From Nitrospirota bacterium (GTDB taxonomy: Bacteria > NPL-UPA2 > JAADIA01): 32,367 nucleotides of DNA. The notes below the pieces were generated by a model. That model was not told the DNA's origin, searched no databases, and saw only the letters and a list, made by a program, of their open reading frames with translations. Positions within the stretch are counted from its first letter, which is position 1; each line of letters opens with the position of its first letter. A program made the position numbers and the translations under genes. Positions 3,701 through 30,180 of the stretch are shown here, piece after piece. Where the stretch lies: assembly GCA_013151555.1 (NCBI GenBank), contig JAADIA010000091.1, positions 1-32,367 on the forward strand, given 5' to 3'.

Positions 3701-3720
3701 GGGGGTCTCCTATATTCCCG

Positions 3721-3772
3721 GGGACAGTCCCGATTCTACGAGCTTACGCTCCGTAAATCCGGGACAGTCTCC
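3721..3772. repeat. GGGACAGTCCC palindromic element, copy A
   Basis: A 52-bp element between the 4-epimerase and dehydrogenase genes. It begins with GGGACAGTCCC and ends with a near copy of the same block. Between them, GATTCTACGAGC and GCTCCGTAAATC form an imperfect stem (10 of 12 positions pair) around a short loop. Two further copies lie at 5216-5266 and 7911-7959, always between co-directional genes of this operon. It resembles REP-type elements; no transposase gene is nearby. Confidence 0.85.
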
Positions 3773-3859
3773 TTTGTCTTTCCGAGCCTTCATTTTCTTG
3801 TTTCATGGAACTAATTACACCCTATAAAAGTGGTTGAATCAAGTTGAGCATTGTCTTAT

Positions 3860-5173: not shown

Positions 5174-5215
5174 AATGTTCGTTTGCTTTCCAGGTTTTCT
5201 TCCATCTGTATGTCC

Positions 5216-5266
5216 GGGACAGTCCCGATTCTACGAGCTAACGCTCCGTAAATCTGGGACAGTCCC
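5216..5266. repeat. GGGACAGTCCC palindromic element, copy B
   Basis: The second copy, between the dehydrogenase start (5173) and the phosphatase-family stop (5281). It keeps both GGGACAGTCCC ends and the GATTCTACGAGC/GCTCCGTAAATC stem, and differs from copy A at a few positions. The conservation of the whole unit, not just the stems, argues for dispersal from a common source. Confidence 0.85.
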
Positions 5267-5280
5267 TTTAATCCGTCACC

Positions 5281-7891: not shown

Positions 7892-7910
7892 TGTTTGTGC
7901 TTTCTGCTCA

Positions 7911-7959
7911 GGGACAGTCCCGATTCTACGAGCTGCGTTCCGTAAATCGGGACAGTCCC
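7911..7959. repeat. GGGACAGTCCC palindromic element, copy C
   Basis: The third copy, between cysN start (7891) and cysD stop (8012). The loop differs (GAGCTGCGTTCC instead of GAGCTTACGCTCC) while both GGGACAGTCCC ends are perfect. A short AAAGGGAC-like sequence follows at 7989 but is not a full copy. Confidence 0.83.
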
Positions 7960-11204: not shown

Positions 11205-11220
11205 AGTTAATCTCCCCACT

Positions 11221-11320
11221 AAATAAGCTCTAAATATCAAGTAAGAGCTAAACATCAAGCACCAAATTTCAAAATTGGTGATTTAGTCATTGGTTATTAT
11301 TTAGTATTGGTTATTATTTA
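11221..11320. repeat. AATAACC iterated-word inverted repeat, copy 1
   Basis: The gap between cpsD-like stop (11322) and the Wza start. The left arm repeats words such as AATATCAAG and ATCAAGCACCAAAT; the right arm carries TTGGTGATTTAG followed by CATTGGTTATTATTT twice. A perfect short stem CACCAAATTT/AAATTGGTG forms the apex. The same words, ATCAAGCACCAAAT and GGTGATTTAG, recur in copy 2 at 18541-18720, in the other half of the window. Confidence 0.8.
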
Positions 11321-13795: not shown

Positions 13796-14908
13796 ATGGA
13801 TAAGATAGATAGACTGAAGTTTTGGTTGGCCTTGAATGCTATTCCCGGTCTGGGAGCACGGAGAGCGAAGCTGCTTCTGAAACATTTTGGGAGTCCTCAG
13901 GCTATCCTTGCAGCTCCTTCTTCTAAGTTAAGAGGAATTCCCGGTATCGGTCCGGAACTGACCAAGAGAATAATAAACTGGAAAACATATCTGGATTTGG
14001 ACAAAGAATTTTGTTTGTTGGAAAAGCATCAGGTTAAGGTAATTGTTGTTGATGATAGCTCTTATCCAAAAAACTTAATAAACATTTTTGATCCTCCCTT
14101 AATCCTTTATATAAAAGGAGAGCTCCTTCCCCGGGACTGGATTTCGGTAGCTATTGTGGGCTCCCGGCGTTCTTCTTTTTATGGAAGGAGAACAGCAGAG
14201 AAGTTAGGCCGGGAACTGGCGGCCAGGGGATTGACAGTAGTTAGTGGCCTGGCTCGGGGTGTCGATTCGGCGGCTCACAAAGGAGCGTTATCCGGTGCCG
14301 GACGGACGATAGCTGTTCTGGGAAGCGGTTTGGATGTGGTTTATCCTCCTGAAAATAAGGAACTGATGGAAGAGATTTCCCGAAAAGGAGCAGTCGTCTC
14401 GGAGTTTCCTATGTCCACTTTTCCCGAGAGAGGGAATTTCCCCCGGCGGAATCGAATTATCAGCGGTCTTTCTTTGGGAGTGGTAGTTGTGGAAGCGGCT
14501 CAAAGGAGCGGGGCTTTGATTACTGTTGACTGTGCTCTCGAACAAGGCCGGGAGGTCTTTGCTCTTCCCGGGAAAGTGGATTCTCTGACCAGCCGGGGCA
14601 CTAATATATTGATTCAACAGGGAGCTAAGCTGGTGACTACCAGCGAAGATATCATTGAGGAACTGGAGCCGATATGGGAAAAGTTGTATCCGGAGAAGGA
14701 GATGAGAAACACCGATAACCTGCCTTTGCCTCCTTTGAAAGAAGAAGAGATGAAGGTATATAATCTTTTATCCGATGAGCCTAAACAGGTGGATTCTCTT
14801 ATCGGGGAAAGCGGATTGCTTCCCGGTCATATTTCTTCTGTTCTCTTGATGCTGCAGATGAAGAAGCTTATTAAAGAACTTCCCGGGAAGAAATATATAA
14901 AAGCGTGA
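13796..14908 (+). CDS. dprA: DNA-processing protein DprA (Smf)
   Basis: A 370-residue protein that loads RecA on incoming single-stranded DNA in natural transformation; it is also conserved in non-competent bacteria. Order of domains: N-terminal helix-hairpin-helix/SAM-like region (AIPGLGARRAKLLLKHFG, then GIPGIGPELTKRI), the extended Rossmann DprA core with VAIVGSRRSS, VVSGLARGVDSAAHKGAL, VLGSGLDVVYPPENK, PRRNRIISGLS and SGALITVD, and a C-terminal winged helix (about residues 315-370, DEPKQVDSLIGESGLLPGHI). Length is normal. I take the ATG at 13796; a TTG three codons earlier (13787) is possible, and neither has a strong ribosome site. It is the first of the plus-strand housekeeping run. Confidence 0.95.
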   Translation: MDKIDRLKFWLALNAIPGLGARRAKLLLKHFGSPQAILAAPSSKLRGIPGIGPELTKRIINWKTYLDLDKEFCLLEKHQVKVIVVDDSSYPKNLINIFDPPLILYIKGELLPRDWISVAIVGSRRSSFYGRRTAEKLGRELAARGLTVVSGLARGVDSAAHKGALSGAGRTIAVLGSGLDVVYPPENKELMEEISRKGAVVSEFPMSTFPERGNFPRRNRIISGLSLGVVVVEAAQRSGALITVDCALEQGREVFALPGKVDSLTSRGTNILIQQGAKLVTTSEDIIEELEPIWEKLYPEKEMRNTDNLPLPPLKEEEMKVYNLLSDEPKQVDSLIGESGLLPGHISSVLLMLQMKKLIKELPGKKYIKA

Positions 14909-14910
14909 AA

Positions 14911-15006
14911 AGTTGTAAGTATTAAGTTGTAAGTTGTAAGTATTAAGTTTTTTTTCTTAATTCTTAATGCTTAATACTTAATACTTAATTCTTATAACTT
15001 ACAACT
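14911..15006. repeat. TTAAGTATTAAG iterated-word inverted repeat, copy 1
   Basis: This fills the dprA-topA gap. The left arm iterates AGTTGTAAGTATTAAG; after a T-run the right arm iterates the complementary CTTAATACTTAATAC and ends TAACTTACAACT. The two arms can fold into a long AT-rich hairpin. The same words recur at 17197-17304, on the other side of topA. Confidence 0.85.
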
Positions 15007-15034
15007 GTTCTAAACTGTTTTAAAAGGAGTAATA

Positions 15035-17197
15035 ATGCCTACTAAATCATTGGTTATTGTGGAATCGCCGGCTAAGGCAAAGACAATCAACAAGTTCCTC
15101 GGCTCGAATTATCAGGTTAAATCCTGCTGGGGGCATGTGCGGGACCTTCCTAAGAGTAAGCTTGGAGTTAATGTGGAAGATGATTTCCAGCCTGAGTATG
15201 TTACCGTTCGCGGGCGGGGGAAAGTTGTTAAAGAAATTCAGAAAGCAGCTAAAGAAGTAGATAGAATTCTGCTTGCTTCCGATCCTGACCGGGAAGGGGA
15301 AGCTATCTCCTGGCATCTGTCTGAAATTTTAGGAAACAAAGATAGTATCTACCGCATAAATTTCCATGAAATAACTAAAACAGCTATCCGGGAAGCAGTG
15401 AAGAATCCCGGACGGATAGACTTGAATAAGGTCAATGCTCAACAGGCAAGGAGAATTCTGGATAGGATTGTCGGTTATAAATTAAGCCCTCTCCTTTGGA
15501 AGAAAGTAGGGAGAGGTTTAAGTGCGGGAAGAGTGCAATCGGTAGCTGTTCGACTCGTTTACGAGCGGGAGAAAGAGATTGAAAAGTTCGTTCCTCAAGA
15601 GTATTGGTCGGTAATAGCGAGTTTGAGAACAGAATTATCGGGGGATACTTTTGAAGCTAAGCTGGAGAAAATTGATTCCGAAAAGGCGAAGATTGATAAT
15701 GAGGAACAGGTTAAAAAGATAGTCGATGAACTTAAAGGAGCAGAGTTTCATATTAAGAGTATAAAGAGAAAGGATCAGAGAAGAAATCCCTCTCCTCCTT
15801 TCACTACCAGTTACCTGCAGCAAGAGGCTTCCCGGAAGCTCCGTTTTACCGTTAGGAAAACGATGCGGGTAGCTCAACAGCTCTATGAGGGGTTGGAAGT
15901 AGATGGAGAAGGAAGCGTTGGCCTGATTACTTATATGAGAACTGATTCGGTGCGGGTATCGGCAGAGGCTCAGCAGGAGGCTGCGAGTTATATAAAAGAT
16001 AAATTCGGTCCGGAATTTCTTCCTTCCCAACCGCCTCAATATCGGGCAAAGAAAGGGGCTCAGGACGCTCATGAAGCGATCCGACCTACCGACGTGGGAC
16101 GGGAGCCGGAGAGACTTAAACCTTTTCTTAGTCTTGAACAATATCAATTATATAAGTTGATTTGGAACCGTTTCCTGGCCAGTCAGATGAAGCCGGCTCT
16201 TTTCAAGATGACTACTGTTGATATAGCCGCAGGACGGTTCATCCTCCGGGCTACGGGGCTGGAGATGAAGTTTAAAGGGTTTATGGCGGTGTATGTGGAA
16301 GCAAAGGAGGAAGAAGAGAAGCAACCAGGGAACGGGTCGGAAGATGTCGCCGGTCCGGAGAATTCTTCGTCGGGATTGGATGTGAAGAAGAAAAATGAAA
16401 AGCTCTTGCCGGAACTGAAGGAAGGAGAAAAGTTAACTCTTCTTGAATTATTGCCGGGACAGCATTTCACTAAACCTCCGTCCCGGTTTTCGGAAGCCGG
16501 TTTGGTCAGAGCTTTGGAGGAAGAGGGGATTGGACGCCCAAGCACTTATGCGCCTATTATTAATACTATTCAGGAACGGCAATATGTGGAAAAAATTCAG
16601 GGAAGGTTTCATCCTACGGAGTTGGGGGGAATAGTTACGGAGCTTTTAGTGAATCATTTCCCGGAGATTTTAGATGTAAAGTTTACGGCTAACCTGGAAA
16701 ACAAACTGGATGGGATTGAAGAGGGAGAAGTTGATTGGGTACAACTGCTCCGGGAGTTTTATCAGCCGTTTATTATCACTCTGGACAAGGCGAACCGGGA
16801 AGCGAAAAGAGTTAAAAGGAAAGAGATTCCTACCGATCAAACTTGCCCCGATTGCGGGGGAGTGATGATGCTGAAGACGGGAAGATACGGAAAATTCCTG
16901 GCCTGTGGTAATTTCCCTGAATGTCGCCATACTCAATCGGTAACCCTGGGAGTGAAGTGTCCGCAGGAAGGATGCGAGGGGGAGATTGTAGAGAGAAGGT
17001 CCAAGAAGGGAAGAACTTTCTTTGGCTGCAACCGGTTTCCTGAGTGCAAGTTCTTATCCTGGGACAAGCCTGTTGATAAAAAGTGTCCTCAATGTGGAGC
17101 CGGTTTCCTGGTGGAGAAAAGGGGTAAAGAGGGGCAGACTTATCATAAGTGTGTTGATAAAGAGTGTGGATATAAAGAGACTATAGAAAAGGATTAA
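15035..17197 (+). CDS. topA: DNA topoisomerase I (type IA)
   Basis: A 720-residue type IA topoisomerase that relaxes negative supercoils. The TOPRIM domain starts at residue 5 (LVIVESPAKAKTINKFLG) and has the ASDPDREGEAISWHL metal site near 80-95. VNAQQARRILDRIVGYKLSP and SAGRVQSVAVRLV follow. The catalytic tyrosine is Tyr300 in GLITYMRTDS. HEAIRPT and EEGIGRPSTYAPII are the other central motifs. Three C-terminal four-Cys zinc ribbons begin at CPDCGG, CPQEGC and CPQCGA (about 605-715). A variable acidic linker (EEEEKQPGNGSEDVAGPE) splits the gate domain near 425-460. The start has AAAAGGAG at 5-6 nt. Both flanking gaps hold the same TTAAGTATTAAG repeat, whose words overlap the stop codon. Confidence 0.97.
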   Translation: MPTKSLVIVESPAKAKTINKFLGSNYQVKSCWGHVRDLPKSKLGVNVEDDFQPEYVTVRGRGKVVKEIQKAAKEVDRILLASDPDREGEAISWHLSEILGNKDSIYRINFHEITKTAIREAVKNPGRIDLNKVNAQQARRILDRIVGYKLSPLLWKKVGRGLSAGRVQSVAVRLVYEREKEIEKFVPQEYWSVIASLRTELSGDTFEAKLEKIDSEKAKIDNEEQVKKIVDELKGAEFHIKSIKRKDQRRNPSPPFTTSYLQQEASRKLRFTVRKTMRVAQQLYEGLEVDGEGSVGLITYMRTDSVRVSAEAQQEAASYIKDKFGPEFLPSQPPQYRAKKGAQDAHEAIRPTDVGREPERLKPFLSLEQYQLYKLIWNRFLASQMKPALFKMTTVDIAAGRFILRATGLEMKFKGFMAVYVEAKEEEEKQPGNGSEDVAGPENSSSGLDVKKKNEKLLPELKEGEKLTLLELLPGQHFTKPPSRFSEAGLVRALEEEGIGRPSTYAPIINTIQERQYVEKIQGRFHPTELGGIVTELLVNHFPEILDVKFTANLENKLDGIEEGEVDWVQLLREFYQPFIITLDKANREAKRVKRKEIPTDQTCPDCGGVMMLKTGRYGKFLACGNFPECRHTQSVTLGVKCPQEGCEGEIVERRSKKGRTFFGCNRFPECKFLSWDKPVDKKCPQCGAGFLVEKRGKEGQTYHKCVDKECGYKETIEKD

Positions 17198-17304
17198 GTA
17201 TTAAGGATTAAGTATTAAGAATTAAGTGTTAAAGATTGGGGATTGGATGGGGATTACAACTTAATACTTACAACTTAATACTTAATACTTAATACTTACA
17301 ACTA
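17197..17304. repeat. TTAAGTATTAAG iterated-word inverted repeat, copy 2
   Basis: This fills the topA-xer gap. The left arm iterates GATTAAGTATTAAG, the centre is GATTGGGGATTGGATGGGG, and the right arm iterates ACTTAATACTTACAA. It starts inside the topA stop codon and ends about 7 nt before the xer start, so it occupies the place where a ribosome site would be. Confidence 0.85.
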
Positions 17305-17310
17305 TTTCTT

Positions 17311-18264
17311 ATGGATAAATATATTAAAAGATTTATGACTTACCTGGAAATCGAGCGGAATTTCTCTCGTCATACCTTGATGAGTTATGGGGGAGATTTG
17401 AGACAGTTTGCCGGTTTTTTATTAAGGAGTTCTCTGTCTGCGTCCGGTTTGCCTGCACAGGCAGGTCGAAAGCTTCCTCAGGGAGAAAATATCCCGGATG
17501 CCGTTGACTACCTGACGATCAGGGAATTCCTGGCTTATCTTCAGGAAAGGGGAATCAGCCGGCGGACGGTTTCCCGGAAGTTAGCTGCTTTGCGTTCTTT
17601 CTTTAAGTTCCTTTGCGAGGAAGGTTATTCTTCTTCTGATCCCACGGCAGGTTTGAGGACTCCGCGTTTGGAGAAGAGACTTCCTCAGTTTCTTGACCTG
17701 GAACAGGTGACAAAGTTAATGGAGGCTCCCCGGGGAGAGGGGGTTCTTGAACTGAGGGATAGGGCTATTTTAGAAACTCTTTATAGTACCGGGATGCGGG
17801 TGAGTGAACTTATCGGTCTTAATGCTTCTCAGATAGATTTTATTGGGGGCGCTTTGAAAGTTATGGGTAAGGGGAGAAAAGAGCGAATAGTTCCTGTTGG
17901 GGAGAAAGCTTTAGAAGCGCTGAACCGTTATCTGGATAAACGGACGGAGTTGTTCCGGAGAAGGAAAAAGGATATCTTGCCGGATAGGAAAGCGCTCTTT
18001 CTTAATAACTGGGGAGGGAGGCTTACTGCTCGCAGTGTCATTAGGATGGTGAAGAAGTATATTGGAAAGATATCCACTGAGATGAATATCAGCCCGCATA
18101 CTTTAAGACATACCTTCGCTACTCATCTTCTTAACGCCGGAGCAGATTTGAGAGCTGTCCAGGAACTCCTTGGGCACGTTAGTCTTTCTACTACTCAGAT
18201 ATATACGCATGTAACTGTGCCGAGGTTAAAGAAAGTTTATGATCGAGCTCATCCGAGAGCTTGA
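17311..18264 (+). CDS. xerC: Tyrosine recombinase XerC/XerD
   Basis: A 317-residue tyrosine recombinase that resolves chromosome dimers. The N-terminal SAM-like core-binding domain (residues 1-120) is followed by the catalytic domain with Arg in STGMRVSELIGL, Lys in MGKGRKER, HTLRHTFATH (His and Arg), LLGHVSLSTTQIYTHV (His and the catalytic Tyr). Position after topA is the usual one for xerC, but sequence alone does not separate XerC from XerD. Near residues 40-70 the protein carries about 19 residues more than E. coli XerD; this insert (SASGLPAQAGRK) is encoded by a stretch with the perfect inverted repeat TGCCTG-CA-CAGGCA at 17450-17463. No ribosome site is visible before the ATG. Confidence 0.93.
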   Translation: MDKYIKRFMTYLEIERNFSRHTLMSYGGDLRQFAGFLLRSSLSASGLPAQAGRKLPQGENIPDAVDYLTIREFLAYLQERGISRRTVSRKLAALRSFFKFLCEEGYSSSDPTAGLRTPRLEKRLPQFLDLEQVTKLMEAPRGEGVLELRDRAILETLYSTGMRVSELIGLNASQIDFIGGALKVMGKGRKERIVPVGEKALEALNRYLDKRTELFRRRKKDILPDRKALFLNNWGGRLTARSVIRMVKKYIGKISTEMNISPHTLRHTFATHLLNAGADLRAVQELLGHVSLSTTQIYTHVTVPRLKKVYDRAHPRA

Positions 18265-18270
18265 AAAATA

Positions 18271-18470
18271 GGCACAAAGGCACAGAGGCACAAAGTAGCA
18301 AAGGCACAAAGGAAAAAATAAGAGCCTATATACTTGCAGTTATGTGGAGTGTGGAGCATAAACTATTTGCCCATTTAAGTACTTGTTTTGCTTTTAGTTG
18401 CAGTTAAAGATTTTTTTGTTTTTTTAACTCTGTGCCTTTGTGCCTCTGTGCCTTTGTGTCTCTGTGCCTT
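18271..18470. repeat. GGCACARA iterated-word hairpin element, copy 1
   Basis: It starts 6 nt after the xer stop. The left arm (18271-18310) iterates the period-8 words GGCACAAA/GGCACAGA. The right arm (18427-18470) iterates the complement CTCTGTGCCTTTGTGCC. The loop is longer than in other copies but shares AGGAAAAAATAAG, ATACTTGCAGTT and TTTTTTTAACTCTGTGCC with copies 2 and 3. Confidence 0.88.
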
Positions 18471-18489
18471 CTTTTACTATTAGGATGTC

Positions 18490-18518: not shown

Positions 18519-18540
18519 ATGGAGGCGTTGAAATAAACAA

Positions 18541-18720
18541 GAGCCAAGAAATAATAACCAATAATCAAGCACCAAATATCAAATAAGCTCCAAATACCAA
18601 TAATCAATAATCAAACTGAGAAGATTTTCCTGTCATTAGATTGGAACCTTGTCTGGTGATTGGTGATTTAGACATTGGTTATTATTTGGTTATTGTAATT
18701 TGGTAATTGGTTATTATTTG
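18541..18720. repeat. AATAACC iterated-word inverted repeat, copy 2
   Basis: The left arm iterates AATAACCAATAATCAAG, ATCAAATAAGCTCCAAATACC and similar words; the right arm reads GGTGATTTAGACATTGGTT then TATTATTTGGTTATTG. The centre (18621-18655) is not repetitive. It shares ATCAAGCACCAAAT and the right-arm words with copy 1 at 11221-11320. With the previous two entries it accounts for the whole 500-bp xer-hslV gap; no gene is seen there. Confidence 0.82.
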
Positions 18721-18764
18721 TTTGTTTTAGCTTGCTATAAGACATAATACGAGGTGAAACAGTT

Positions 18765-20664: not shown

Positions 20665-20822
20665 ATTAAAGATGGTTTAAGGTTAAAAGTTTAAAGTTTA
20701 AGGTTTAAGGTTGAAGGGGAAAAGAAAGTAAAAAAGGTGGTTTAAGGTTAAAGAGGAAGAAAATCTTCAAAATAAGGGCTGGTTGTTTACTTTAAACTTT
20801 CAACTTTGAACCTTAAACCATT
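20665..20822. repeat. GGTTTAAGGTTAAA iterated-word inverted repeat
   Basis: This fills most of the 271-bp hslU-rpsB gap. The left part iterates TTTAAGGTTAAAAG and TTTAAGGTTTAAGG with about a 7-nt period; the right arm reads CTTTAAACTTTCAACTTTG then ACCTTAAACCATTTTT, its complement. The whole can fold as an AT-rich hairpin ending in a T-run. The rest of the gap holds the rpsB promoter. Confidence 0.82.
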
Positions 20823-20843
20823 TTTCATAAACTATTTTTCTGC

Positions 20844-20930: not shown

Positions 20931-21938
20931 TTGGCAGCTATTTTCTTGAGGGAGCTTTTAGAAGTAGGGGTCCATTTCGGTCATCAGACTAAACGTTGGA
21001 ATCCAAAAATGGCCCGCTACATATTTGGAGAGAGAAACGGCATTTATATTATTGACCTACTGAAAACAGTAGAAAACTTGAAGAAAGCCAGTAAGTTTTT
21101 AACGGAACTTGTTGGAGGCGGAGGAACGGTTCTCTTTGTGGGGACGAAGAAGCAAGCTCGGGAAACCATTAAACTGGAAGCTACCAGATGTGAGATGTTC
21201 TATGTTAATAATCGCTGGTTAGGAGGAATGCTGACTAATTTCCAGACAATAAAGAAGAGTGTCAGCCGTTTGAAGCAGCTTAAGCGAATGGAGGAAGAAG
21301 GGACTTTTGATATTCTTCCCAAGAAAGAGGTAATTAAACTCAACAAAGAAAAAGAGAAATTGGAAAAGAATCTGGCCGGGGTTGAGGAAATGCATAGTTT
21401 GCCGGCAGCTCTTTTTGTTGTTGATGTTAAAAAGGAGAAGATAGCTGTTTCTGAGGCTAATAAATTAGAGATACCGGTTGTGGCTCTCGTGGATACTAAT
21501 TGTGACCCGGATGAAATAACTTTCTGTATTCCGGGTAATGATGATGCTATCAAGGCAATAAAGGTTCTCTGTTCCCGGATTGCTGATGCTATCTTAAAAG
21601 GGAAAGAAATGGCTAGGGCCGGGGAAAAGAAGGTTGAGGATGAGAAAGAAGAAATGGTAGCTGCTCTTACTGAAAGTCCATCTGTCTCGGGAAAGCAAAG
21701 TGACGAAGGTATGAAACCGGCACAAAGTGATAAAGGCGTAAAAAAGGCACAGAGGCACGCAGGCACAGAGGCACACAGGGATAAAGATACAAAGGGACAA
21801 AGTGATAAGGGCGTAAAAAAGGCACAGAGGCACACAGGCACAGAGGTACAAAGGGATAAAGATACAAAGGCACAAAGTGACGGAGGCGTAAAGGCACAGA
21901 GTGATAAAGGTGCAGAGGCACAGACAAAGAAGGTATAG
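20931..21938 (+). CDS. rpsB: 30S ribosomal protein S2 with repeat-derived C-terminal extension
   Basis: Residues 1 to about 228 are a normal S2: [20 protein letters not shown] at the start, [42 protein letters not shown] and VDTNCDPD. S2 binds the 30S head-body junction near S1. I chose the TTG at 20931: AAAGGAGG precedes it, and it places the protein start where S2 usually starts; an in-frame TTG at 20913 has no ribosome site. The total of 335 residues is about 90-100 more than usual. The extra tail is polar and repetitive ([11 protein letters not shown] ... [11 protein letters not shown]), with an exact 75-bp (25-residue) period. Its DNA is built from the GGCACARA words that form hairpins between genes elsewhere in the window. 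Confidence 0.95.
21719..21927 (+). repeat. GGCACARA-word tandem repeat inside rpsB (75-bp period)
   Basis: CAAAGTGATAAAGGCGTAAA begins at 21723, and near-identical copies begin at 21798 and 21873, exactly 75 bp apart, so the frame is kept. Units contain GGCACAGAGGCACRCAGGCAC, the left-arm word of the intergenic elements. No complementary arm follows. Confidence 0.88.
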
Positions 21939-21968
21939 GGGATAAGAATTAAGGAGGAAGATAATAAA

Positions 21969-22508
21969 GTGAGTGAGAAGACGAAGATAACTTCAGATAT
22001 GGTTAAAAAACTGCGGGATATGAGTGGAGCAGGGGTGATGAGCTGTAAAAAAGCTCTGGCTGAAACAGACGGGGATTTTGAGAAAGCACTAAGATTTTTG
22101 CGGGAGAAAGGACTTTCTTTAGCCGCTAAAAAGGCGGGGAGGGATACGAGAGAGGGGTTGATTTCATCCTATATCCATTTCGGAAGTAAGATCGGGGTTT
22201 TGATAGAACTTAACTGTGAAACCGATTTTGTAGCCAAGACGGATGAGTTTAAGCAATTGGCTAAAGATATTTCTATGCATATTGCCTGGAACAATCCTCA
22301 ATTTCTGTCGCGTGACGATGTGCCCGGGGAAATAGTGGAACAGGAAGGCAATCGAGAAAAGTATTTTTCTCAGGTCTGTCTTCTCGAGCAGCCTTTTCTT
22401 AAAGATAATGAACTCTCCGTAAATGATTATCTGTCTTCGGCGATTGCCAGGATAGGTGAGAATATCAAAATAAGGCGCTTTGTGAGGTACCAGTTAGGGG
22501 AAGAGTGA
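21969..22508 (+). CDS. tsf: Elongation factor Ts (short form)
   Basis: A 179-residue nucleotide-exchange factor for EF-Tu. The N-terminal UBA-like domain has TSDMVKKLRDMSGAGVMSCK and the LREKGLSLAAKKAGR helix; the core has the EF-Tu contact motif TDFVAKTDEF (T85-F94). The usual length is 280-300; only one core subdomain plus the C-terminal helix (SVNDYLSSAIARIGENIKIR) remains, as in Thermus-type EF-Ts of about 196 residues. The start is GTG at 21969 behind AAGGAGGAAG. It follows rpsB by 30 bp in the universal order. Confidence 0.95.
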   Translation: MSEKTKITSDMVKKLRDMSGAGVMSCKKALAETDGDFEKALRFLREKGLSLAAKKAGRDTREGLISSYIHFGSKIGVLIELNCETDFVAKTDEFKQLAKDISMHIAWNNPQFLSRDDVPGEIVEQEGNREKYFSQVCLLEQPFLKDNELSVNDYLSSAIARIGENIKIRRFVRYQLGEE

Positions 22509-25354: not shown

Positions 25355-26157
25355 TGCGCAATAGACTACTTATGGCGGTCCTCTTTACCCCTATCTTCAT
25401 TATCCTCATTTTTTGGGGAGGAATTCCCTTCTTCTTCTTAGTTGCGGCCATTGCTCTTACAGGGCTTCTTGAATTCTACCGGATGATAGAGACAAAAGAG
25501 ATAAAACCTTTGATTTTCCTGGGGTTGCTGATGGCGATAGGGTGGCTGTTGGCTATTTCCGTTCCCCAAGCTTTCTCTTTGGTTATCGCTGCCAGTGTGA
25601 TGGTTCTTCTCGTCTATCAGATGAGAAGAAATGACCTTTCCCGGGCTATAACTAACTGTGCGATGACCATTTTCGGTTTGTTTTACGTTGTTGGACTTCT
25701 CGGACATTTGCTTGTCTTAAGAAATTTGGAGGGAGGAAGAAGCCTGGTCTTTACGGTGTGGTTTATTACCTGGATGGGAGATAGCGGGGCCTTTACTATT
25801 GGTAAATCCTGGGGGAAACATAAGCTGCTTCCTCGAATCAGTCCCAAGAAGACAGTAGAAGGAGTAATCGGAGGAATAGGTTCGGCTATATTGGCTGCTT
25901 TTGTTGCTTATATAACCTTGAGGGTTATCTTCAAAAGCGAGCCTTTTCCTATCTCTCACGCATTTTTCCTGGGACTGATTTTGGGGGTGGTGGGAATTCT
26001 GGGTGATCTTAGTGAGTCTCTCTTCAAGCGAAAGGCCAAGGTGAAAGATAGCGGAGAGAGTATTCCGGGGCATGGAGGTGTGCTTGATACTTTCGATAGT
26101 CTCCTTTTTACCGTGCCGGTAATGTATTATTATGCTAAGTTTATTCTGCATAGATAA
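25354..26157 (+). CDS. cdsA: Phosphatidate cytidylyltransferase
   Basis: A 267-residue multi-spanning membrane enzyme making CDP-diacylglycerol, the phospholipid precursor. Seven or eight hydrophobic segments are visible. The family signature near the C-terminus is present: SPKKTVEGVIGG (residues about 168-179), GDLSESLFKRKAKVKDSG near 223-240 and PGHGGVLDTFDSLLFT near 244-259. Start is ATG coupled to uppS by TAATG. It is followed by GGCACARA element copy 2. Confidence 0.95.
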   Translation: MRNRLLMAVLFTPIFIILIFWGGIPFFFLVAAIALTGLLEFYRMIETKEIKPLIFLGLLMAIGWLLAISVPQAFSLVIAASVMVLLVYQMRRNDLSRAITNCAMTIFGLFYVVGLLGHLLVLRNLEGGRSLVFTVWFITWMGDSGAFTIGKSWGKHKLLPRISPKKTVEGVIGGIGSAILAAFVAYITLRVIFKSEPFPISHAFFLGLILGVVGILGDLSESLFKRKAKVKDSGESIPGHGGVLDTFDSLLFTVPVMYYYAKFILHR

Positions 26158-26165
26158 GGAAAGAG

Positions 26166-26297
26166 AAGGCACAGAGGCACAAAGTGACAAAGGCACAAAG
26201 GAAAGATAAAAGCCAATACTTGCAATTTTTTAAGTTTTTCAACTTTTTTAACTTAGTGCTTCTGTGCCTTTGTGCCTTAGTGCCTTTGTTCTTAGTG
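26166..26297. repeat. GGCACARA iterated-word hairpin element, copy 2
   Basis: It starts 9 nt after the cdsA stop. The left arm is AGGCACAGAGGCACAAAG then TGACAAAGGCACAAAGG; the right arm is CTTCTGTGCCTTTGTGCC and TTAGTGCCTTTGTT. The loop GGAAAGATAAAAGCCAATAC and TTGCAATTTTTTAAG closely matches copy 3, so the loop, not only the arms, is conserved. Confidence 0.9.
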
Positions 26298-26317
26298 TTT
26301 CAAGATGGAGTAAGTTT

Positions 26318-28986: not shown

Positions 28987-30066
28987 TTGCGGAAACGAAG
29001 GGGGACAAGAAAAGTAAAGTTCGGTCAACTATCTGTCGGAGGAAAAGCTCCTGTCTCCGTCCAGTCCATGACCAAGACCGATACCCGGGATGTAAAAGCT
29101 ACTGTCAGGCAGATCCGGGGATTGGAAAAGGTGGGTTGCCAGGTTATCAGAGTAGCTGTTCCCGATGAGGAAGCCGCACGTTGTCTGGGACGGATTAAGG
29201 AAAGAATTAAGATTCCTCTGATAGCTGATATCCATTTCGATTACCGGTTAGCTCTGATTGCTATTGAGGAAGGGGTGGATGGGTTACGTCTTAATCCCGG
29301 TAATATCAGGGATAAGAGGAAGATAAAAACAATAATTAAAGCAGTTAAGGCAGCCCAAATTCCGGTAAGGATTGGGATTAATTCCGGTTCCCTGGAGAAC
29401 CGTTACCGGTCCCGGATTAAAGATTACGACTTACCGCTGGCGATGGTAAAGAGTGCCGGCGATTACATAAAAATCTTTGAGGATTTAGATTTTTATGACC
29501 TTATCATTTCTCTGAAAGCCTCTGATGTTCCTGCTACTGTGAAGGCCTACCGGCTGATGGCGGAGAGATGTGATTATCCCTTCCATTTAGGAATAACTGC
29601 GGCCGGTCCTTCTTTCCGGGGAGCCATTCGTTCAGCCGTGGGGTTGGGAATTCTTCTCTCAGAAGGTATTGGGGATACTATTCGTGTATCTTTAACCGGA
29701 AACCCGCGGGAAGAAGTGAAAGCGGGATACGAAATATTGAAATCTCTGGGACTGTTTCGGGAAGGTCCTACTCTTATCTCTTGTCCTACCTGTGGCCGCT
29801 GTACAATAGATTTAGTCAAGATTGTCACTCAAGTTGAACGAAAACTCTCAACCTCTAACCTCCAACCTTCAACTTTTAAAATAGCCGTCATGGGCTGTGT
29901 GGTCAATGGTCCCGGCGAAGCCAGAGAGGCAGACATCGGCGTTGCCGGAGGCAAAGGTTTCGGAGTCCTTTTCCGGAAAGGGAAGGTGATAAAAAAGGTG
30001 CCGGAAAGCAAGCTGGTGGAGACAATTTTGGAGGAAATTGAAAGTAAAATTAGAGGCACAAAGTGA
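28987..30066 (+). CDS. ispG: 4-hydroxy-3-methylbut-2-enyl diphosphate synthase (IspG)
   Basis: A 359-residue [4Fe-4S] enzyme of the MEP pathway that reductively opens MEcPP to HMBPP. Features: VKFGQLSVGGKAPVSVQSMT, VGCQVIRVAVPD, PLIADIHFDYRLAL, LRLNPGNI and PVRIGINSGSL in the TIM barrel; cluster Cys266, Cys269 in CPTCGRC and Cys304 in MGCVVNGPGEA. The start is TTG at 28987 behind GGGGGAG; an earlier TTG at 28969 lacks one. The linker KLSTSNLQPSTFK before Cys304 is encoded by iterated AACCTC words with a perfect 8-bp inverted repeat (29831-29838/29868-29875); total spacing is only three residues longer than E. coli. The last codons and stop (RGTK, TGA) come from GGCACARA copy 3. Confidence 0.95.
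   Translation: MRKRRGTRKVKFGQLSVGGKAPVSVQSMTKTDTRDVKATVRQIRGLEKVGCQVIRVAVPDEEAARCLGRIKERIKIPLIADIHFDYRLALIAIEEGVDGLRLNPGNIRDKRKIKTIIKAVKAAQIPVRIGINSGSLENRYRSRIKDYDLPLAMVKSAGDYIKIFEDLDFYDLIISLKASDVPATVKAYRLMAERCDYPFHLGITAAGPSFRGAIRSAVGLGILLSEGIGDTIRVSLTGNPREEVKAGYEILKSLGLFREGPTLISCPTCGRCTIDLVKIVTQVERKLSTSNLQPSTFKIAVMGCVVNGPGEAREADIGVAGGKGFGVLFRKGKVIKKVPESKLVETILEEIESKIRGTK
29831..29875 (+). repeat. AACCTC iterated-word repeat inside ispG
   Basis: AAGTTGAA (29831-29838) and TTCAACTT (29868-29875) are perfect inverted arms. Between them lie CTCAACCTCTAACCTCCAAC, a run of near-identical 7-mers. It is in frame and encodes a linker. Confidence 0.75.
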
Positions 30067-30165
30067 CAGAGGCACAAAGGCACAAAGGAAAAATAGGACC
30101 AATACTTATTGCAGTTTTTTAGGTATTTTAACTCTGTGCCTTAGTGCCTCTGTGCCTGTGTGCCT
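30052..30165. repeat. GGCACARA iterated-word hairpin element, copy 3
   Basis: The left arm AGAGGCACAAAGTGACAGAG then GCACAAAGGCACAAAGG begins inside the ispG coding end; the right arm is CTCTGTGCCTTAGTGCCTC then TGTGCCTGTGTGCC. The loop GGAAAAATAGGACCAATACT and TTGCAGTTTTTTAGG matches copy 2. It ends 15 bp before the recG start. Confidence 0.9.
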
Positions 30166-30180
30166 ATTTGTAGTAGGCAA

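What the first reader, a model, noticed from the sequence alone, without database searches (positions are those of the whole stretch)
21719..21927. Ribosomal protein S2 tail built from an intergenic repeat
S2 here has a tail of about 100 residues past its globular end, with a strict 75-bp/25-residue tandem period at 21723, 21798 and 21873. The DNA words (GGCACAGAGGCACACAGGCAC, CAAAGTGAYAAAGG) are those of the hairpin elements in three gaps of the same window. A dispersed non-coding repeat appears to have been captured as coding sequence by a universal, essential gene and then amplified in frame. I am not aware of a description of this.
Basis: partly seen in the sequence, partly recalled or inferred. 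Interest (0 to 1): 0.85.

Follow-up and report, generated by a model that had tools for sequence, protein, structure and literature searches.

The report
Ribosomal protein S2 with repeat-derived tail
In one uncultured bacterium, about the last 75 residues of the essential ribosomal protein S2 are spelled by an eight-letter DNA repeat that normally sits between genes; the same repeat has run into the ends of several other genes here and in a relative, a new variant of the repeat-in-gene capture known from Rickettsia.

Summary
rpsB (20931-21938) encodes a 335-residue S2 whose last 107 residues follow the globular fold. About 21697-21927 is a degenerate array of the octamer AAAGGCAC, with a 75-bp (25-codon) unit about 2.3 times over. 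The same octamer and variant words form hairpin elements in gaps of this window and at about 40 places in the 1.81-Mb genome. None of seven same-order or same-phylum genomes has the repeat in S2, and there rpsB abuts or nearly abuts tsf. Capture is not unique to S2: the octamer also spells the C-terminal tails of KsgA, an OppD-like ATPase, an epimerase and a glycosyltransferase here, and of PheT, ProS, a TrpE/PabB-like enzyme and a chorismate mutase in a same-order genome, where it also links TrpD to TrpC. The pure octamer has no stop in any frame and reads KGTKAQRH in every sense frame, so capture is easy. "Amplified in frame" is true but weak evidence of selection: copies 1 and 2 differ by four non-synonymous changes and one synonymous. 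Assembly error is unlikely (longest exact repeat 24 bp). Rickettsia palindromic elements and other MITE-ORF fusions are the precedent. The tail is probably a tolerated, disordered by-product; its function is untested.

The parts
20931..21938 (+). rpsB, ribosomal protein S2, TTG start at 20931 behind AAAGGAGG, 335 residues, TAG stop 21936-21938
   Evidence: Pfam PF00318 E 2.7e-99; sequence
20931..21614 (+). globular S2 core, 228 residues
   Evidence: aligned to S2 in 56 of 60 genomes; confident model up to about residue 240
21615..21696 (+). tail portion of ordinary K/E-rich type, not octamer-derived
   Evidence: similar in composition to tails of G001, G004, G002
21697..21927 (+). octamer-derived coding array (units AAAGTGAC, AAAGGCGT, AAAGGCAC, AGAGGCAC, AAAGGGAT, AAAGATAC) with two 3-base departures from the 8-base rhythm
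21720..21794 (+). 75-bp copy 1: [25 protein letters not shown]
21795..21869 (+). 75-bp copy 2: [25 protein letters not shown], five base differences from copy 1
21870..21935 (+). partial and rearranged third copy: [22 protein letters not shown]
21939..21968 (+). 30-base spacer before tsf with GGAGG; in seven relatives rpsB abuts or nearly abuts tsf
18253..18482 (.). octamer hairpin element in a gap (arms 18253-18324 and 18408-18482)
26155..26301 (.). octamer hairpin element in a gap, with CAAAGTGACAAAGG at 26180
   Evidence: (fold z -4.3)
30040..30180 (.). octamer hairpin element behind ispG; its first bases encode the last residues (RGTK) of IspG
   Evidence: fold z -7.2

Best explanation
A single arm of a dispersed intergenic hairpin repeat, made of the octamer AAAGGCAC, came to lie at the 3' end of rpsB, next to the tsf start. 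The octamer has no stop codon in any frame, so the S2 reading frame runs through it and ends at the next stop downstream. The arm then grew by slippage or unequal recombination, including one 75-bp step that preserved the frame. The result is about 75 extra hydrophilic, net positive, disordered residues on the end of S2. The most likely role is none or nearly none: a tolerated tail, kept in frame because frameshifts inside it usually meet stops early. Shown: array identity, lineage specificity, recurrence in other genes, openness. Inferred: the insertion mechanism, translation in the cell, and near-neutrality.
For: Shared octamer and variant words with about 40 element places in the genome. 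Arms-only non-coding array with the same variant units at G000:C97:5422-5570. S2 tails of seven same-order or same-phylum genomes lack it, and rpsB there abuts or nearly abuts tsf. The same arm ends four other genes here, beyond their Pfam domains, and the KsgA tail is unmatched in five relatives. A same-order genome shows four more tails and a TrpD-TrpC fusion through the array. The pure octamer is open in six frames and always reads KGTKAQRH on the sense strand. Copies 1 and 2 differ by four non-synonymous and one synonymous change. Tail modelled with pLDDT under 50. Longest exact repeat 24 bp inside and 23 bp against the fetched genome stretches.
Against: Both 3-base departures from the octamer rhythm, all AGTGA spacings (27, 75, 75, 24) and the absence of in-frame stops, against 12 stop words in the other two sense frames of the repeat, hint at some constraint on the frame, so the tail may not be fully neutral. 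The expected number of in-frame stops from non-coding arms is only 2.1 (chance of none 0.12), so this is weak. No proteomic or read-level evidence was available, and no close relative shows the step before capture.
Confidence: 0.78

Rival explanations
1. The tail is selected: its positive, disordered repeats help S2, for example by binding mRNA or S1 near the mRNA exit, or by keeping ribosomes translating up to the tsf start so that rpsB and tsf stay coupled.
For: Frame preserved through two 3-base indels and a 75-bp duplication; zero in-frame stops; net charge +7 over 73 residues; rpsB abuts or nearly abuts tsf in relatives. Disrupting ribosomal-protein extensions affects fitness in Mycoplasma pneumoniae (PMC9534751).
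Against: Four of five differences between copies are non-synonymous; any capture of this strand gives the same hydrophilic peptide, so composition is not evidence; same-order genomes do with 26-66 residue tails of other composition; the effective number of independent frame events is about three or four.
Confidence: 0.17
2. Assembly or binning artefact: the array was joined to rpsB by misassembly across repeats.
For: The genome is a 99-contig assembly rich in this repeat.
Against: Longest exact internal repeat 24 bp and longest match to the fetched genome stretches 23 bp; the ORF runs through in frame and tsf follows in the expected order with its own GGAGG; similar captures occur at many loci in two genomes.
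Confidence: 0.04
3. The S2 tail came first as a protein-level low-complexity repeat, and resembles the intergenic elements by chance or seeded them.
For: S2 tails vary in length and composition in many bacteria.
Against: The DNA words, including variant units, match non-coding hairpins and a non-coding array in the same genome, and the octamer occurs in other genomes where S2 has no such tail.
Confidence: 0.01

Closest known systems
Rickettsia palindromic elements (RPE; Ogata et al. 2000 and 2002, as summarised in PMC10969869 and PMC2229807)
   Same: Dispersed palindromic repeats found in frame inside or fused to conserved genes, apparently tolerated by the host protein.
   Different: RPEs are about 150 bp with a conserved peptide, inserted as an element; here a single arm of a hairpin built from an octamer is used, mostly at C-termini, with later tandem growth, and the openness comes from the octamer itself in all six frames.
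Bacterial MITE-ORF fusions (ERIC/RU-1, YAPL/RU-2, RU-3, Correia elements; PMC2229807)
   Same: Small intergenic hairpin repeats whose open frames fuse to host ORFs; the open Correia version is found in genes and the stop-rich version almost only between genes.
   Different: No terminal TA motif or target duplication established here; repeat units are 8 bp and vary in number.
Disordered extensions of ribosomal proteins (Mycoplasma pneumoniae; PMC9534751)
   Same: Extra, mostly disordered residues on a ribosomal protein; such extensions are common across bacteria.
   Different: The passages read give no origin of those extensions from an intergenic repeat.

Membership tests
Ribosomal protein S2 (uS2) | full S2 domain | tested here: met
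   PF00318 positions 1-216 of 216, E 2.7e-99
Ribosomal protein S2 (uS2) | rpsB followed by tsf | tested here: met
   EF-Ts at 21969-22508
MITE / palindromic repeat fused in frame to a host gene (RPE-like) | same repeat dispersed at many loci of the genome | tested here: met
   about 40 places
MITE / palindromic repeat fused in frame to a host gene (RPE-like) | open frame joined to conserved host genes | tested here: met
   S2, KsgA, OppD-like, epimerase, glycosyltransferase; PheT, ProS, TrpE/PabB-like, chorismate mutase, TrpD-TrpC in G002
MITE / palindromic repeat fused in frame to a host gene (RPE-like) | palindromic hairpin in the gene-borne copy itself | tested here: not met
   S2 copy has one arm only; RNA fold z -1.1 and -2.0 against -4.3 and -7.2 for intergenic copies
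MITE / palindromic repeat fused in frame to a host gene (RPE-like) | terminal inverted repeats with target site duplication and a mobilising transposase | tested here: inconclusive
   arms are inverted repeats; target duplications not analysed; two Y1 transposase genes exist, and the one examined is flanked by GGGACAGGCTACTTT ends, not the octamer
Rfam RNA families | match above a gathering score | tested here: not met
   only sub-threshold matches to miRNA and snoRNA families

The most novel reading that the evidence does not exclude
A repeat whose unit is free of stops in all six frames acts as a frame-independent source of protein tails and gene fusions across a bacterial lineage, and in operon junctions such as rpsB-tsf its translation is selected to keep neighbouring genes coupled.
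Probability: 0.2. Interest if true: 0.75.

Novelty: new variant of a known kind. Interest (0 to 1): 0.52.

Why it matters
It gives an essential-gene example of non-coding repeat DNA turning into protein, with many parallel cases in the same and a related genome, so how such sequence is tolerated or used becomes testable. The octamer shows a simple rule: a unit of 8 bases without stops reads as one hydrophilic peptide in any sense frame, so capture at a gene's 3' end costs little. It also warns annotators that lineage-specific tails of conserved proteins may be repeat DNA.

Tried and rejected
Rfam gave nothing. Papers holding the octamer string: none found. A link to the Y1 transposase was not supported: the copy examined has other flanking repeats; the second copy was not examined. 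The openness of the frame as proof of selection was rejected, since the pure octamer is open in all frames and chance openness is 0.12. The strict 75-bp period as proof of coding selection was rejected because a frame-preserving step has a one in three chance. Captures in distant genomes with the octamer (G198, G099, G224 and others): none clear in the few ORFs inspected.

Full report
What is there. The window is contig C19 of an unnamed 1.81-Mb genome in 99 contigs, 93.7% complete. rpsB starts at TTG 20931 behind AAAGGAGG and ends with TAG at 21936-21938. The Pfam S2 domain is complete. Past the 228-residue core lie 107 residues; this is the longest tail of 109 S2 proteins measured here (next 77, median 19). 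The first part is an ordinary K/E-rich tail. From about 21697 the DNA is an array of octamers related to AAAGGCAC, with a 75-bp unit about 2.3 times over. The octamer score is far outside 500 shuffles.

The repeat elsewhere. A 24-base pattern of three octamers has 54 forward and 56 reverse matches in this genome against 9 and 9 for the reversed control. Around these I fetched 34 stretches. With the window they hold 40 arrays or array pairs: 19 with both arms above threshold, forming a hairpin with a recurring central sequence close to GTTAAAAAACCTAAAAAACTGCAAGTATTGG, and 21 with one arm above threshold, many with a weaker second arm (my count). Two of the hairpins were folded and fold well (z -4.3 and -7.2). 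In all 19 two-arm elements the AAAGGCAC arm comes first, so a gene's 3' end meets the sense octamer. One-arm arrays exist outside genes too: C97:5422-5570 carries the same variant units as the S2 tail. The pattern occurs in 9 of 241 genomes sampled, including one outside the phylum with 31 matches.

Capture in S2 and in other genes. S2 tails of G001, G002, G004 (same order) and G005-G008 (same phylum) are 26 to 66 residues and not made of the octamer. In those genomes rpsB abuts or nearly abuts tsf; here 30 bases separate them. So the array is specific to this lineage and lies at the gene junction. Four more genes in this genome end in octamer-coded tails beyond their domains: a glycosyltransferase, an epimerase, an OppD-like ATPase and KsgA; PurE and IspG end in a few such residues. 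The KsgA match in five relatives ends at residue 283-285 of 305, just before the octamer tail. In G002 the same happens to PheT, ProS, a TrpE/PabB-like enzyme and a chorismate mutase, and the array joins TrpD to TrpC in one frame. Counting codons from the start of the octamer linker, the first ATG, GTG or TTG is a GTG at codon 32, already inside the IGPS domain; it is the only IGPS match in G002, and G008 has a TrpC of its own in a 265-residue frame. Internal initiation at that GTG is not excluded.

Why capture is easy. A pure AAAGGCAC array has no stop in any of six frames and reads KGTKAQRH in each sense frame. Any loss of a stop, or insertion before one, therefore adds a hydrophilic tail. 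This also means that an open frame and the peptide's composition say little about selection.

Is the frame selected? Copies 1 and 2 differ at five bases: four non-synonymous, one synonymous. From non-coding arms, 2.1 stops would be expected in the 72 codons; none is seen, chance 0.12. Against this, the repeat part holds 12 stop words in the other two sense frames and none in frame, the five AGTGA words are all in one phase at spacings 27, 75, 75 and 24, and both departures from the octamer rhythm are 3 bases. Because of the duplications only three or four of these are independent. Frameshifts inside the tail run into a stop after 12 residues (median). I read this as weak constraint on the frame, not as proof of function. 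The model gives residues 250-335 pLDDT under 50, with the caveat that the alignment holds no homologous tails.

Artefact. The longest exact repeat inside the tail is 24 bp and the longest match to the other fetched stretches of this genome is 23 bp, so a usual assembly should not confuse it. Reads were not available.

Known kinds. Rickettsia palindromic elements and other MITEs are known to be fused in frame to host genes (PMC10969869; PMC2229807), and disordered extensions of ribosomal proteins are common (PMC9534751). What differs here is the single octamer arm, the C-terminal position, the later tandem growth, and openness in all six frames. The S2 copy lacks the palindrome, so it is not itself an RPE-type element, though it works like one. 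The papers searched did not hold this repeat.

Noticed in passing
L242 (G002:C14:3500-7134), ORF of 627 aa on the minus strand: TrpD and TrpC are fused in one frame through an octamer-coded linker (ISKAQRHKGTEAQRHRGAEN); it is the only IGPS match in that genome.
   Followed up: partly
window 14907-15009, 17186-17306, 11216-11320, 18526-18732, 20665-20828: Other hairpin-like families of short iterated words fill gaps of the same window (7-base TTAAGTA type, CCAAATATCAAAT type, TTTAAGGTTAAAAG type).
   Followed up: no
window 3710-3775, 5199-5269, 7900-7934: A dispersed repeat GGGACAGTCCCGATTCTACGAGCT in three gaps; a Y1 transposase gene elsewhere in the genome (L203 near 1470-2139) is flanked by GGGACAGGCTACTTT inverted ends, a possible REP and transposase pair.
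   Followed up: no
L192 5222-5370 (G000:C97:5422-5570): A one-arm non-coding octamer array with drifting units (GGGAC, GGCGT, GATAT, GACGT), the nearest non-coding analogue of the S2 tail.
   Followed up: partly
G198, several contigs: A genome outside the window's phylum carries 31 matches to the same octamer pattern, so the repeat recurs across distant bacteria.
   Followed up: partly
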